From Blastococcus haudaquaticus (GTDB taxonomy: Bacteria; Actinomycetota; Actinomycetes; Mycobacteriales; Geodermatophilaceae), in the NCBI RefSeq assembly GCF_900230285.1, contig NZ_OCNK01000002.1, positions 496,001-560,000 of the forward strand: 64,000 bases of DNA. The letters run 5' to 3'. The translations under genes were made by a program, and so were the position numbers. Shown here piece after piece: positions 8,288 through 26,050 of the stretch. The notes under the pieces are model-generated. The model was given only the letters and a program-made list of their open reading frames with translations, was not told where the DNA came from and did not search any database. Each line of letters starts with the position of its first letter. Position 1 is the first letter of the stretch.

Positions 8288-9688
8288 TCAGGCCTTGCCG
8301 ACCGTCCGCCAGCCGCCCTGGTAGGTCTCCCGCGCCATCTTCGCGTAGGGAACGGGGCTCACGATGGCCCGCACCTCGAACTGCTCGTGCGCCTCGACGG
8401 TGGTCTTCTTGCTCCCGCCGTCGGGCTCGCCCCAGACCACGCGGACCTCGGCGCCGTGGGGGACGTCGGGGCTGATGGTGGCCAGCGACAACCCCTTCTG
8501 CTCGTTCGCCGAGATGCCGGTGAACATCGACACGCCGAGGACGGTGCCGTCGGCGTCGACGACCTTGTCGAAGTTCGACGACCCGTAGTTCGCGTTCGGC
8601 AGGTCGAAGAACTGGTACTTCGCGCCCTCGACCGGGGACGACAGCAGCGTGGCGAGGTCGTCGGAGTTCCACTCCAGGGTGACCTTGCGGCGCTGGGCGT
8701 CCTTGTCCACGGCCTCGAGGGCGTCGCGGCCGATGAAGTCGTGGTCGAACTTCACGAACGACCCGTAGCCGAGCTCCCACGGGTTGGTGTAGTAGTCCTC
8801 GATGTTCTCCGACACGAAGCTGCCGGCGATGGCATTGGTCGCCTCGTAGCTGTCGGCGCCGAGCCACTCGCGGTAGGGACGCAGCTCGTCGCCGGTGTAG
8901 ATCGCCGGCAGGGGCGAGGGGATCCAGCCCGACTCGAGGGTGTTGGTGGAGTAGGCGCGCGAGCCGACGGGCTCCATGCCGAACTCCCGGCCGGCCTCGA
9001 GGATGGCCTCGCGGATCCGGTCGTAGCTCTCGTAGGGGCCCCAGACCTCCAGGCCCGGCGCGCCGGCCATGCCGTGGCGCAGGGTGCGCACCCTCTCGCC
9101 GGCGATGGTCATCTCGCCCATGCGGAAGAACTTGAGCTGCTCCACCGTGCCGCCGTTGAGCTTCTCGATGATCGGCCAGGCGTTGGGGCCCTGGATCTGG
9201 AAGCGCCAGAGGTCGCGGTTGACCTGCTTGCCGTAGGGGCGCGACGGAGACCGGGGATCGTTGCGGATCTCGACGTCGTAGCCGCCGGTCTCACCCTTGA
9301 ACTGCAGCCAGTTGGCGCCGGGCGCGCGGCCGACGTAGACGTACTCGTCCTCGTCGAGGTGGAAGAGGATGCCGTCACCGATGACGTGGCCGGCGGGGGT
9401 GACGGGGACGAACTGCTTGGCCATGTTCACCGGGAAGTTCGCCACGCTGTTGATCCCGGTGTCGGAGATCAGCTTCAGGGCGTCCGGGCCCTTCATGAAC
9501 AGGTTGAACATGTGGTGCGACTGGTCGAAGAGCACGGCGGTCTGCTGCCATGCCTTCTGCTCGCGCCGCCAGTTGGTGAACTCGGAGGGGACCACCGGGT
9601 AGATGTAGGTGCCGAGCTGGGAGTTGCGCAGCAGTCCGACGGTGTCGCCGGTCTGGTCGAGCAGCTCCTGCAGGTTCTTCGCGGTCAT
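8288..9688 (-). CDS. ligM: THF-dependent aromatic O-demethylase LigM
   Basis: GcvT-fold aminomethyltransferase-like enzyme of 466 residues that moves the aryl methyl group of vanillate or 3-O-methylgallate to tetrahydrofolate, giving protocatechuate or gallate plus 5-methyl-THF. From memory, long stretches match Sphingobium SYK-6 LigM (471 residues): [45 protein letters not shown] and the C-terminal SPVPY...ETYQGGWR. The ATG at 9688 gives the family length; the same frame stays open upstream but without family sequence. Divergent from the MFS permease. Which methoxy acid is preferred cannot be told. Confidence 0.9.
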
Positions 9689-9991
9689 GTTGTTCCGTTC
9701 TGGTCGGTTGTCACCTCTGCGGACCGGCGGAGCCGGCCCGTGGCCTGTGGCCGGTGGCGTGCCTGCCAGTGGCCCGCGCCACACCGTCGCGTGCAGCCTA
9801 GGACGGCGGATGTGTCCCGGCACACGGGCATCCGTCACCCGGCGCCGGCCGTTACGGCGGCTCGGCGTGCGTCGGATGACGGGACGTCCGGGTCATTTGA
9901 CGTGTTTGTCGGGCGGCCTGCGCTCCCGGCGCGACGGCGGCGGCCGGTATCGGTCAGAGTGGCCCCGTCCGAACCACGGAAGGGGCAGCTG
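9689..9991. promoter_or_regulatory. Divergent ligM / MFS promoter region
   Basis: 303 bases with no gene. On the minus strand TAGGCT (9795-9800) is a possible -10 for ligM. Just upstream of it GTGTCCCGGCACAC (9812-9825) is a 14-bp palindrome with one mismatched pair, a candidate regulator site. On the plus strand TTGACG (9897-9902) resembles a -35, without a convincing -10. The importer/gntR palindrome is not present. Confidence 0.35.
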
Positions 9992-11263
9992 ATGGCGCGT
10001 CGCCCGGGAGGCGCGGGAGCTCCGCTGCCCGGGGCGATCGATCCCGGCCGGACGTCCTGGGGCGCCGTGGCCGGCCTCATGGGCGCCGGGGTGGTGGCCG
10101 CCGCCCAGATCGGCGGAGCCGCGGCCGCGCTGCCCGTCCTCCAGGAGGACTTCGGGCTCGACTCGACCACCGCCGCCTGGTACCTCTCGACGGTGAGCGC
10201 CCTCGGCGCCGCCGGCGGCGTCCTGCTCGGGTGGCTGGGGCAGACGCTCGGGTTCGGTCGCCAGGTCCGGTTCGGACTGGCGGCGATCGTCGTCGCCGAC
10301 CTCGGTGGTGCGCTGGCCGACTCGCTGCCGGGGCTGCTGGTCGCCCGCGTCGGCGAGGGGCTCGGGCTGGTGATGGTGATCCTCGCCGCCCCGCCACTGC
10401 TCTCGGAGGTGGCCGGCCCCGAGCACCGGCGGCTCGTCGCCGGGGCCTGGGGCGCCTACATGCCGGTGGGCTCGGGCCTGGCCGCGCTCCTCGTGCCGCC
10501 CGCGATCGCGCTGGTGGGCTGGCAGGGGGCATCGGTCGCCGATGCCTGCCTGGCCGCGGGCGTGCTGCTGGTGGTCCTGCGCTGGGTGCCGTCCGCCGCG
10601 GTGCGCAGGCGGGCGTCGGTCGACGGACTCCTGGGGGCCTTCCGGTCACCGTCCGTCCTGATCATCACCGTCGCCTTCGGCCTCTACGCCGCCCAGTACC
10701 TGGCCGTCGTCGGGCTGCTGCCGGCCGCCCTCGTCGGGAACGGGCTGTCCGTGGCCGCCGCCGGGCTGGTGGGCGCCGTCGTCTTCCTGGTCAACGCCCC
10801 CGCCAACCTCCTCGGGGCCTTCCTGCTGCACCGGGGCGCGCCGCTGCGGTGGGTGATCCTCGCGGGGTGTGCCGGCATGGCCGTCACCGTCTGGGGGGTG
10901 ATGGATCCAGGCCTCCCGACGAACCTCCGGGTCGCGTCCGCGATCGCCTTCTCCTTCGTCGCGGGGCTGGTCCCGTCCGCCCTCTTCGCCGGCCTCGCCG
11001 CGGTGTCGGCGGGGACCGACTCGGCCGGGGCCGCCATCGGCCTGGTGACCCAGGGGTCGGCCGTGGGCCAGCTGCTCGGTCCGCCCCTGGTCGTCACCGT
11101 GGGCACGGCCGTCGCGACCGGGGCGGCCCAGTCGGCCGTGCTCGTGTGCCTGACCGGGCTCGTGGCGGTCGGTGCCGTGGTGCTGCCACGCGCCGGACGC
11201 CAGGGCTCGCAACCGTCTCCAGCGCTTTCGGGAGGGTCTCCGGCCCGCCCGTCGCCACGATGA
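9992..11263 (+). CDS. MFS permease, probable aromatic-acid transporter
   Basis: Major facilitator protein of 423 residues with about twelve hydrophobic segments. The start is ATG at 9992 after AGGGG. The loop between segments 2 and 3 is GWLGQTLGFGRQVRFG, a weak form of the usual G-x3-D-R-x-G-R-R motif. It lies between two THF-dependent O-demethylase genes and its stop is 14 bases before the second one, so import of a methoxylated aromatic acid or export of an intermediate is likely. The substrate is not determinable. Confidence 0.8.
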   Translation: MARRPGGAGAPLPGAIDPGRTSWGAVAGLMGAGVVAAAQIGGAAAALPVLQEDFGLDSTTAAWYLSTVSALGAAGGVLLGWLGQTLGFGRQVRFGLAAIVVADLGGALADSLPGLLVARVGEGLGLVMVILAAPPLLSEVAGPEHRRLVAGAWGAYMPVGSGLAALLVPPAIALVGWQGASVADACLAAGVLLVVLRWVPSAAVRRRASVDGLLGAFRSPSVLIITVAFGLYAAQYLAVVGLLPAALVGNGLSVAAAGLVGAVVFLVNAPANLLGAFLLHRGAPLRWVILAGCAGMAVTVWGVMDPGLPTNLRVASAIAFSFVAGLVPSALFAGLAAVSAGTDSAGAAIGLVTQGSAVGQLLGPPLVVTVGTAVATGAAQSAVLVCLTGLVAVGAVVLPRAGRQGSQPSPALSGGSPARPSPR

Positions 11264-25426: not shown

Positions 25427-25467
25427 CCTCACCTCCGGTGGAGGGCGCTGACCTCACCTCCGGTGGA
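25422..25467. repeat. 21-bp tandem duplication at convergent stops
   Basis: The sequence gctgacctcacctccggtgga occurs at 25422-25442 and 25447-25467 (25-base period). One copy holds the stop of the epoxide-hydrolase-like gene, the other the stop of the cyclo-ligase gene. Each copy contains CCTCC-GGT-GGA(GG), a small hairpin. Confidence 0.85.
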
Positions 25468-26050
25468 TGGCGAGGTCCTCCCAGCCGCCGGACGGCGTCA
25501 CGACCGCCCGGACCGGACGGTCGTGGACCTCGCTCGGGAGCTCGTCGATCCGCTCGTCGTCGAAGACCACCGTGACGAGGACGGCGTCCGGGCGCGCGTG
25601 GACGAGCGCGCGGTCGTAGTAGCCGCCGCCGCGGCCGAGCCGGATGCCGAACCGGTCCACCGCGAGCGCGGGGACGACGACGGCGTCCGCCTCCGCGAGG
25701 GCGGTCGGACCGAGACGAGGGCCGGCGGGCTGGTACAGGCCGAACCGGCCGTGCTCGAGCTCGCCGGTGTGGACCGCCCAGTCCAGGACCCGGCCCTCCG
25801 ACGGGATGACCGGGAGCAGGACGCGGGCCCCCAGCTCGGTGTAGCCGTGGGGCAGCCGGCCGGCGCCGGGCTCGGTCGGGTCCGGGACGAAGGCGGCCAG
25901 GGTGCCGACGCCCCTCAGTCCCTCGAGCAGAGCCGCGGTCACCGCGTCGGCGGCCGCCGCGCGGTCCGCCGTCGAGCGCGCCCGCCGCCGGAACAGCAGA
26001 GCCTCCCGCAGCTCGTCCTTGGCGACCACCGGGTCCTGGGGATCGGTCAC
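25454..26050 (-). CDS. 5-formyltetrahydrofolate cyclo-ligase
   Basis: MTHFS/YgfA-family enzyme of 198 residues: ATP-dependent conversion of 5-formyl-THF to 5,10-methenyl-THF. The N-terminal KDELREALLFRRRA basic helix, PALAVDRFGIRLGRGGGYYDR (substrate and ATP-binding loop) and the downstream DRPVRAVVTPSG are standard. The GTG at 26050 follows directly from the end of the preceding intergenic space. It is another folate-cycle gene in the neighbourhood, although on the opposite strand from the main block, and would rescue 5-formyl-THF formed as a side product of methenyl-THF. Confidence 0.9.
   Translation of the reverse strand: MTDPQDPVVAKDELREALLFRRRARSTADRAAAADAVTAALLEGLRGVGTLAAFVPDPTEPGAGRLPHGYTELGARVLLPVIPSEGRVLDWAVHTGELEHGRFGLYQPAGPRLGPTALAEADAVVVPALAVDRFGIRLGRGGGYYDRALVHARPDAVLVTVVFDDERIDELPSEVHDRPVRAVVTPSGGWEDLAIHRR

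What the first reader, a model, noticed from the sequence alone, without database searches (positions are those of the whole stretch)
8288..26050. Self-contained THF-dependent O-demethylation system with its own folate supply
Two LigM/DesA-family demethylases are followed within 12 kb by MTHFR, FolD, a PabB-PabC fusion, an Fch/FTCD_C protein, FolP and, slightly apart, 5-formyl-THF cyclo-ligase. SYK-6 is known to place metF beside ligM. Here the set goes further and includes folate biosynthesis (pABA and dihydropteroate), suggesting that the THF pool is expanded locally when methoxy-aromatics are eaten. Actinobacteria are better known for VanAB or P450 demethylation, so this arrangement may be little described.
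Basis: partly seen in the sequence, partly recalled or inferred. Interest (0 to 1): 0.85.

Follow-up and report, generated by a model that had tools for sequence, protein, structure and literature searches.

The report
Demethylation operon with folate-making genes
A soil actinobacterium keeps genes for making the vitamin folate inside the gene cluster that uses folate to strip methyl groups from lignin-derived aromatics, and some relatives and a Rhodococcus plasmid show the same pairing in rearranged forms, which suggests that cells make cofactor to match when this pathway runs.

Summary
In detail: LigM (8288-9685 -), a DesA-like protein (11278-12639 +), the run MTHFR-FolD-PabBC-Fch-FolP (17796-22910 +, three 4-base overlaps) and MTHFS (25454-26050 -) lie in one cluster with LigAB.

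Of 76 sampled genomes of the family, 20 have LigM; PabBC lies within 20 kb in 15 of these, FolP in 13, either in 17. Gene order varies while linkage persists. In six loci PabBC stands in one co-directional run with ABH1-LigAB-MTHFR; where the MTHFR-folate operon is divergent it carries a motif shared with the ABH1-LigAB promoter in 8 of 11 loci, against 0 of 6 run-on loci. In those 13 genomes FolP is an extra copy. PabBC is not: here it is the only PabB candidate. A Rhodococcus opacus plasmid carries folP, pabB and a FolC-like gene with ligM/desA. A different THF-dependent locus type (dimethylglycine oxidase) has FolP in 12 of 18 loci.

Best reading: folate synthesis is co-expressed with THF-dependent demethylation to meet its demand. 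Outside two families and the plasmid the link is mostly absent. Expression, pool size and growth are untested. New variant of a known kind (precedent: folC2 on pCMU01).

The parts
8288..9685 (-). LigM, THF-dependent vanillate/3-O-methylgallate O-demethylase
   Evidence: NCBIfam NF047885 895.5 bits, cut-off 580; PDB 5tl4 718.5 bits
9887..9904 (-). putative shared operator copy between LigM and the MFS gene
   Evidence: score 10.2, 95% null 6.3
9992..11263 (+). MFS transporter, perhaps for an aromatic acid (inferred)
   Evidence: Pfam MFS_1 98.2 bits
11278..12639 (+). DesA-like THF-dependent O-demethylase; substrate uncertain
   Evidence: NF047633 570.5 bits, under the cut-off of 800; 5tl4 420.2 bits
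12695..13618 (-). LigB, extradiol dioxygenase beta subunit (true start probably near 13552)
   Evidence: Pfam LigB 231.8 bits; NF009902 373.3, cut-off 299, from residue 23
13545..13964 (-). LigA, extradiol dioxygenase alpha subunit
   Evidence: Pfam LigA 117.9 bits
13961..14239 (-). muconolactone-isomerase-like protein
   Evidence: Pfam MIase 108.6 bits; TIGR03221 82.0, under the cut-off of 130.6
14241..15023 (-). alpha/beta hydrolase (ABH1)
   Evidence: Pfam Abhydrolase_6 71.2 bits
15104..15121 (-). putative shared operator upstream of ABH1-MIase-LigAB
   Evidence: score 23.8; this upstream set trained the motif, so it is not an independent result
15183..15962 (-). LuxR-type response regulator
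   Evidence: Response_reg and GerE
15842..17644 (-). sensor histidine kinase; true start uncertain, as the ORF covers the operator site at 17592
   Evidence: Pfam HisKA_3, HATPase_c, GAF_2
17592..17609 (+). putative shared operator upstream of the MTHFR-folate operon
   Evidence: score 10.8; 8 of 11 distinct loci of this architecture pass the 95% null
17796..18659 (+). divergent MTHFR, expected to oxidise 5-methyl-THF (direction inferred)
   Evidence: Pfam MTHFR 47.9 bits; start from conservation
18687..19559 (+). FolD
   Evidence: Pfam THF_DHG_CYH_C 227.2 and THF_DHG_CYH 113.6 bits
19556..21400 (+). PabB-PabC fusion, the only PabB candidate found in the genome
   Evidence: Chorismate_bind 278.6, Aminotran_4 129.6 bits; TIGR00553 343.8, cut-off 328.4; genome scan
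21397..22026 (+). Fch-like FTCD_C protein, probable methenyl-THF cyclohydrolase
   Evidence: Pfam FTCD_C 136.7 bits; FchA model 96.4, under the cut-off of 275
22023..22910 (+). FolP, second dihydropteroate synthase
   Evidence: TIGR01496 304.4, cut-off 162.6; motifs; extra copy
22980..24473 (+). aldehyde dehydrogenase
   Evidence: Pfam Aldedh 427.4 bits
24500..25426 (+). alpha/beta hydrolase (ABH2); the ORF opens at 24224, start uncertain
   Evidence: Pfam Abhydrolase_1 96.9 bits
25454..26050 (-). 5-formyl-THF cyclo-ligase
   Evidence: Pfam 5-FTHF_cyc-lig 110.7 bits
26077..26850 (-). IclR-type regulator
   Evidence: Pfam IclR_C 102.4 bits
26814..27875 (+). FAD/2Fe-2S reductase, P450 partner
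   Evidence: PDB 6laa and 6kbh (self-sufficient P450s) 251 and 250 bits, phthalate dioxygenase reductase 2pia 180.5 bits
27860..29131 (+). CYP199-type P450, a likely methoxybenzoate O-demethylase (substrate recalled, not tested)
   Evidence: PDB 9g9q CYP199 680.4 bits, CYP199A4 506.3 bits

Best explanation
This is a methoxy-aromatic catabolic cluster with THF as the methyl acceptor, into which the pABA and dihydropteroate steps of folate synthesis have been recruited so that the folate pool keeps up with demethylation. DesA-like protein and LigM move methyl groups from syringate/vanillate-type acids to THF; the divergent MTHFR oxidises 5-methyl-THF; FolD and Fch carry the unit to formyl-THF; MTHFS returns 5-formyl-THF. 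PabBC makes pABA and FolP condenses it to dihydropteroate. Shown here: gene content, operon coupling, shared motif, linkage in several gene orders, FolP duplication, PabBC as the sole PabB candidate. Inferred: enzyme activities, induction by aromatics, enlarged pool, faster growth, direction of the MTHFR reaction, and how the one-carbon unit leaves in this strain (no PurU in the cluster).
For: 4-base overlaps FolD/PabBC, PabBC/Fch, Fch/FolP. Co-directional runs that join PabBC to ABH1-MIase-LigAB-MTHFR in six loci (L123, L124, L126, L130, L014, L022; DesA leads the run in all but L123; FolP is in the run in three; L014 and L022 are one named species), MTHFR-LigM-PabBC in L020, PabB-DesA in L056, LigAB-FolP-DesA in L069. 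Motif before the MTHFR in 8 of 11 distinct divergent loci and 0 of 6 distinct run-on loci, Fisher p 0.009, relatedness ignored. PabBC within 20 kb of LigM in 15 of 20 (one, G176, matches over the PabB half only), FolP in 13 of 20, either in 17 of 20; each of the 13 has a second FolP in the housekeeping clade. LigM-linked FolPs lie outside that clade. R. opacus plasmid with folP, pabB, a Mur-ligase-family protein aligning to FolC, purU, FdhF, LigM- and DesA-type proteins. Dimethylglycine-oxidase-type loci with FolP in 12 of 18 (two of them short matches), PabBC in 4, FolC in 3; the tree placed a third FolP of G138 with these and its neighbourhood proved to be such a locus.
Against: Not universal: 3 of 20 LigM genomes of the family have neither gene within 20 kb (G194, G284, G217; G217's cluster is split, with Fch-FolP on another contig). 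Outside the family, intact FolP or PabB is near LigM or DesA in 3 of 9 genomes of the order sample (G243 has a broken FolP), and in 0 of 12 of the phylum sample, one of which has a FolC-like match. One Agrobacterium and one Rhizobium plasmid locus have MTHFR (with PurU in the first) but no folate synthesis. PabBC as the sole PabB means that co-location could partly reflect where a housekeeping gene settled. The label changes on the trees may be losses as well as gains. Three divergent loci fail the motif test, one of them with a recognisable weaker copy; the window's DesA has no site directly upstream. No expression or metabolite data.
Confidence: 0.65

Rival explanations
1. The cluster mainly gives its host pABA prototrophy. 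Many genomes of the family seem to lack PabB, so the island carries the missing step and FolP rides along; the benefit is independence from outside pABA rather than a larger pool.
For: 28 of 67 good genomes have at most two chorismate-binding enzymes; LigM genomes have three or more in 17 of 20, the others in 22 of 47, Fisher p 0.006, relatedness ignored. In G000 PabBC is the only PabB candidate.
Against: Does not explain FolP, an extra copy in 13 of 13 family genomes that have it near LigM, nor FolC in G265, G120 and the R. opacus plasmid. In G120 and G229 FolP is in the cluster while PabBC is elsewhere. That low-count genomes are pABA auxotrophs is not shown, and which enzymes they keep was not identified one by one.
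Confidence: 0.2
2. The extra FolP and PabBC protect folate synthesis from pABA-like aromatic acids (4-hydroxybenzoates) that would compete at dihydropteroate synthase.
For: Substrates resemble pABA (general knowledge). Sixteen columns separate the main cluster FolPs from the housekeeping ones; two lie next to active-site motifs, one just after the NVTPDSFSDGG loop and one just after SRK.
Against: The motifs at the pABA and pterin sites themselves are the same in the cluster and housekeeping copies of this genome. The same recruitment occurs in dimethylglycine-oxidase-type loci, where no aromatic acid is expected.
Confidence: 0.06
3. Neutral neighbourhood: a block inherited mostly by one family, with no functional tie.
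For: Much of the count comes from related genomes, and outside two families and one plasmid the link is mostly absent.
Against: Linkage persists through several gene orders, the LigM-linked FolPs and PabBCs are not one clade each, and it occurs on a Rhodococcus plasmid and in a second pathway.
Confidence: 0.05

Closest known systems
LigM - S6MTHFR pathway of Sphingobium lignivorans SYK-6
   Same: THF-dependent aromatic O-demethylase with a MTHFR homologue that oxidises 5-methyl-THF (PMC12585457, whole short text read)
   Different: That text mentions no folate-synthesis genes; Yu et al. 2025, the genome survey it cites, is not held and was not read
Plasmid pCMU01 of Methylobacterium extorquens CM4 (chloromethane)
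   Same: THF-dependent methyl catabolism carried with folD, metF2, purU and a second folC (passages and the first part of the discussion of PMC3621897)
   Different: The table passage seen lists no plasmid copy of folP, pabA, pabB or pabC; the pathway also needs vitamin B12
Dimethylglycine-oxidase-type loci (FAD oxidase plus GcvT domains)
   Same: GcvT-type folate-binding demethylase; in this family with FolP, serine dehydratase and PurU, sometimes Fch, FolD, FolC and PabBC
   Different: Different substrate class and enzyme architecture; activity inferred from domains only

Membership tests
LigM (vanillate/3-O-methylgallate O-demethylase) | score over the curated equivalog cut-off | tested here: met
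   895.5 against 580
LigM (vanillate/3-O-methylgallate O-demethylase) | full-length match to solved LigM | tested here: met
   residues 2-462 to 5tl4 8-471, 718.5 bits
LigM (vanillate/3-O-methylgallate O-demethylase) | demethylase activity with THF | not testable with these tools
   needs an assay
DesA (syringate O-demethylase) | score over the curated equivalog cut-off | tested here: not met
   570.5 against 800 for the second demethylase, so DesA-like only
Dihydropteroate synthase (FolP) | curated model and pterin/pABA-site motifs (motif patterns recalled) | tested here: met
   304.4 against 162.6; NVTPDSF, ESTRPG, DPGLGFAK, SRK, RVHD present in the window copy; of the seven LigM-linked copies printed, the G298 one lacks a recognisable RVHD
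PabB-PabC fusion | PabB equivalog plus a class IV aminotransferase (lyase) domain | tested here: met
   TIGR00553 343.8 against 328.4; Aminotran_4 129.6 bits
FchA (methenyl-THF cyclohydrolase) | score over the curated cut-off | tested here: not met
   96.4 against 275; only the FTCD_C domain is secure
Catabolic clusters that carry synthesis of their own cofactor (pCMU01 type) | extra cofactor-synthesis copy linked to the catabolic genes | tested here: met
   FolP extra copy; not so for PabBC
Catabolic clusters that carry synthesis of their own cofactor (pCMU01 type) | co-expression with the catabolic genes | tested here: inconclusive
   operon runs and shared motif; no transcripts

The most novel reading that the evidence does not exclude
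A general rule: gene islands whose enzymes use THF as the methyl acceptor in bulk (aromatic O-demethylation, dimethylglycine-type demethylation) repeatedly capture and co-mobilise the pABA-dihydropteroate-folylglutamate branch (pabB, folP, folC), giving the pathway a dedicated, inducible and transferable cofactor supply.
Probability: 0.45. Interest if true: 0.75.

Novelty: new variant of a known kind. Interest (0 to 1): 0.64.

Why it matters
O-demethylation is a known bottleneck in lignin conversion. If natural THF-dependent pathways carry their own folate supply, cofactor level is a likely limit in engineered hosts, and pabB, folP and folC are candidates to supply with the demethylase. It would also give some folP and pabB paralogues a functional label that homology alone does not give.

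Tried and rejected
Altered FolP tolerant of aromatic pABA mimics: motifs unchanged though two neighbouring columns differ; weakly disfavoured. Neutral neighbourhood: disfavoured by rearranged linkage. GcoA/GcoB for the P450 and reductase was my first guess; the solved relatives say CYP199 with another reductase type. An inverted-repeat search in the window's promoters found nothing shared; a trained motif did. The motif was trained on the ABH1 upstream regions, so 19 of 19 there is no independent result, and the sets hold two loci twice (L015 = L073, L016 = L130); one search counts distinct loci. Literature: nine searches (open-access PMC library only; capped listings) showed no title or abstract start that describes folP or pabB with ligM/desA. 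Only PMC3621897 (passages and part of the discussion), PMC9296663 (passages) and PMC12585457 (whole) were opened, so absence from print is not shown.
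Full report
WHAT IS THERE. The window lies in a 4.5 Mb genome (G000:C5:496001-560000). The named relatives found by its MTHFR are all Blastococcus or Geodermatophilus (15 loci), so I take the family to be Geodermatophilaceae. Between 8288 and 29131 there is a catabolic cluster: LigM, MFS transporter, DesA-like demethylase, LigB, LigA, a muconolactone-isomerase-like protein, an alpha/beta hydrolase (ABH1), a response regulator and sensor kinase, then MTHFR-FolD-PabBC-Fch-FolP-aldehyde dehydrogenase-hydrolase, 5-formyl-THF cyclo-ligase, an IclR regulator, and a CYP199-type P450 with a reductase. 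FolD/PabBC, PabBC/Fch and Fch/FolP overlap by four bases.

COPIES IN THE GENOME. Four pterin-binding proteins: a folP whose neighbours I recognised by eye as ftsH, folE and folK, the window copy, a FolP2-like protein without the ESTRPG and DPGxGFxK motifs, and one in a 1303-residue open frame taken as MetH. Three chorismate-binding proteins: the window PabBC, one taken as TrpE, and one beside a menaquinone-type methyltransferase taken as MenF, both by eye. So FolP is an extra copy and PabBC the only PabB candidate.

LINKAGE IN THE FAMILY. Of 76 sampled genomes, 20 have a LigM match at E 1e-80 and 38 a PabBC match at E 1e-60. PabBC lies within 20 kb of LigM in 15 of 20 (in G176 only the PabB half matches), FolP in 13 of 20, either in 17 of 20 (tallied). 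The three without are G194, G284 and G217, the last with its cluster split (Fch-FolP on another contig). Each of the 13 has a second FolP in the housekeeping clade; only G000's was checked for neighbours.

ARCHITECTURE. In L124, L126, L130, L014 and L022 DesA-ABH1-MIase-LigAB-MTHFR-FolD-PabBC-Fch run in one direction with short gaps (PurU lies between MTHFR and FolD in L014 and L022; FolP follows in the first three); L123 is alike from ABH1 on. In L131 the run reaches MTHFR near the contig end. Elsewhere: MTHFR-LigM-PabBC-PurU-Fch (L020), LigAB-FolP-DesA-MTHFR-FolD-PurU (L069), PabB-DesA-MTHFR-PurU-FolD-LigAB-ABH1 (L056, another family of the order), MTHFR-FolD-PabBC-Fch-FolC-FolP (L129). In the window and ten other distinct loci MTHFR starts a separate run, in most of them divergent from the sensor kinase.

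REGULATION. A motif trained on the ABH1 upstream regions scores above the 95% null in 10 of 17 DesA, 8 of 16 LigM, 8 of 14 MFS (the same divergent region as LigM) and 8 of 19 MTHFR upstream regions; the control regions of HK, LigA, RR, ALDH, GcoB and IclR together pass in 4 of 73, near the expected 5% (two loci are in the sets twice). For the MTHFR promoter the split follows architecture: 8 of 11 distinct divergent loci pass, 0 of 6 distinct run-on loci do (p 0.009, relatedness ignored). Where the folate genes already sit in the LigAB operon they lack the site; where they stand alone they usually have it. What binds is unknown; the linked two-component system is the first guess. In the window there is a site before LigM/MFS, ABH1 and MTHFR, none directly before DesA, which follows the MFS gene.

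TREES. In the 61-row FolP tree the 19 LigM-linked rows fall into groups of 13, 2 (G120/G229), 2 (G138/G125 second locus) and 2 (G125/G227), outside the clade of 22 family housekeeping rows; the label needs 3 changes, 2 forced by well-supported branches, and some long branches meet. The PabBC tree needs 4 changes for the LigM label, 3 forced. Changes may be gains or losses. The G261 PabBC groups with the solitary PabBC of G120 and G229 yet sits beside DesA in its own genome, which looks like a separate capture.

A SECOND PATHWAY. A locus in G257, which has no LigM match, holds a FAD plus GcvT-domain oxidase of the dimethylglycine-oxidase kind (identity from domains) followed by Fch, FolD, FolP, serine dehydratase, PurU, FolC and PabBC. 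Of 76 genomes 30 have the oxidase; 20 more loci were fetched. Among the 18 loci with at least 80% identity, G257 included, FolP is present in 12 (two as short matches), PabBC in 4 and FolC in 3; the three fetched loci at 62-65% have none, and nine others at 59-64% were not fetched. The FolP tree placed a third FolP of G138 with this group, and its neighbourhood proved to be such a locus.

OUTSIDE THE FAMILY. In the sample of 298 genomes of the order, 9 outside the family have LigM/DesA relatives at E 1e-80; intact FolP or PabB is near in G125, G138 and G227, and a broken FolP lies between LigM and DesA in G243. In the phylum sample of 396, 12 others match; a FolC-like match is near LigM in G394, and no FolP, PabB or FolC match was seen in the fetched stretches of the other 11, some on short contigs. 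Plasmid pRop44186_a of Rhodococcus opacus DSM 44186 is annotated with folP, a two-component system, the LigAB genes, FolD, purU, MTHFR, a DesA-type protein, pabB, a Mur-ligase-family protein that aligns to FolC, and a LigM-type protein, with FdhF and fdhD at the edges. In the plasmid collection 76 records match LigM at E 1e-60, mostly Rhizobium and Agrobacterium; I looked at four. One Agrobacterium and one Rhizobium locus lack folate synthesis; the Novosphingobium record is unannotated and showed only LigM by alignment.

CONCLUSION. The pairing of THF-dependent demethylation with folate synthesis is real and recurs in the family, in some genomes of another family and on a Rhodococcus plasmid, and sequence suggests one regulon. 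The demand reading explains both pathways; the pABA-prototrophy reading explains PabBC but not FolP or FolC. Most LigM genomes sampled outside these groups lack it. Nothing here measures expression or pools.

Noticed in passing
window 26814-29131: CYP199-type P450 with a reductase beside the THF system: probably para-O-demethylation next to meta-O-demethylation; its formaldehyde could also load THF (inferred).
   Followed up: partly
window 702-2504 and 12695-15023: PrpF-family and RraA-family proteins, LigAB, a muconolactone-isomerase-like protein and an alpha/beta hydrolase look like a gallate/3-O-methylgallate meta-cleavage route (roles recalled); the tiny isomerase-like protein is 91-98% conserved in the named loci.
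   Followed up: no
window 33385-38310: A second, ortho-cleavage protocatechuate set (PcaG- and PcaH-type dioxygenase subunits, a PcaB-type lyase, an IclR regulator, a PobA-type hydroxylase) lies nearby.
   Followed up: no
window 49951-53815: NAD(P) transhydrogenase genes followed by a protein with a MEDS (DcmR sensory) domain and a STAS domain.
   Followed up: no
G000:C5:337755-339068 (L134): A third, 42% identical LigM/DesA relative elsewhere in the genome with no folate-gene match in its 20 kb stretch.
   Followed up: partly
G243:C5:113940-114612: A FolP in two separate pieces lies between LigM/LigAB and DesA, apparently decaying.
   Followed up: no
L186 (G257:C60): Another FolP near a serine dehydratase and distant dimethylglycine-oxidase-like proteins, perhaps a third type of THF-using locus.
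   Followed up: no
Family sample: 28 of 67 good genomes have at most two chorismate-binding enzymes, which suggests frequent lack of PabB in this family.
   Followed up: partly
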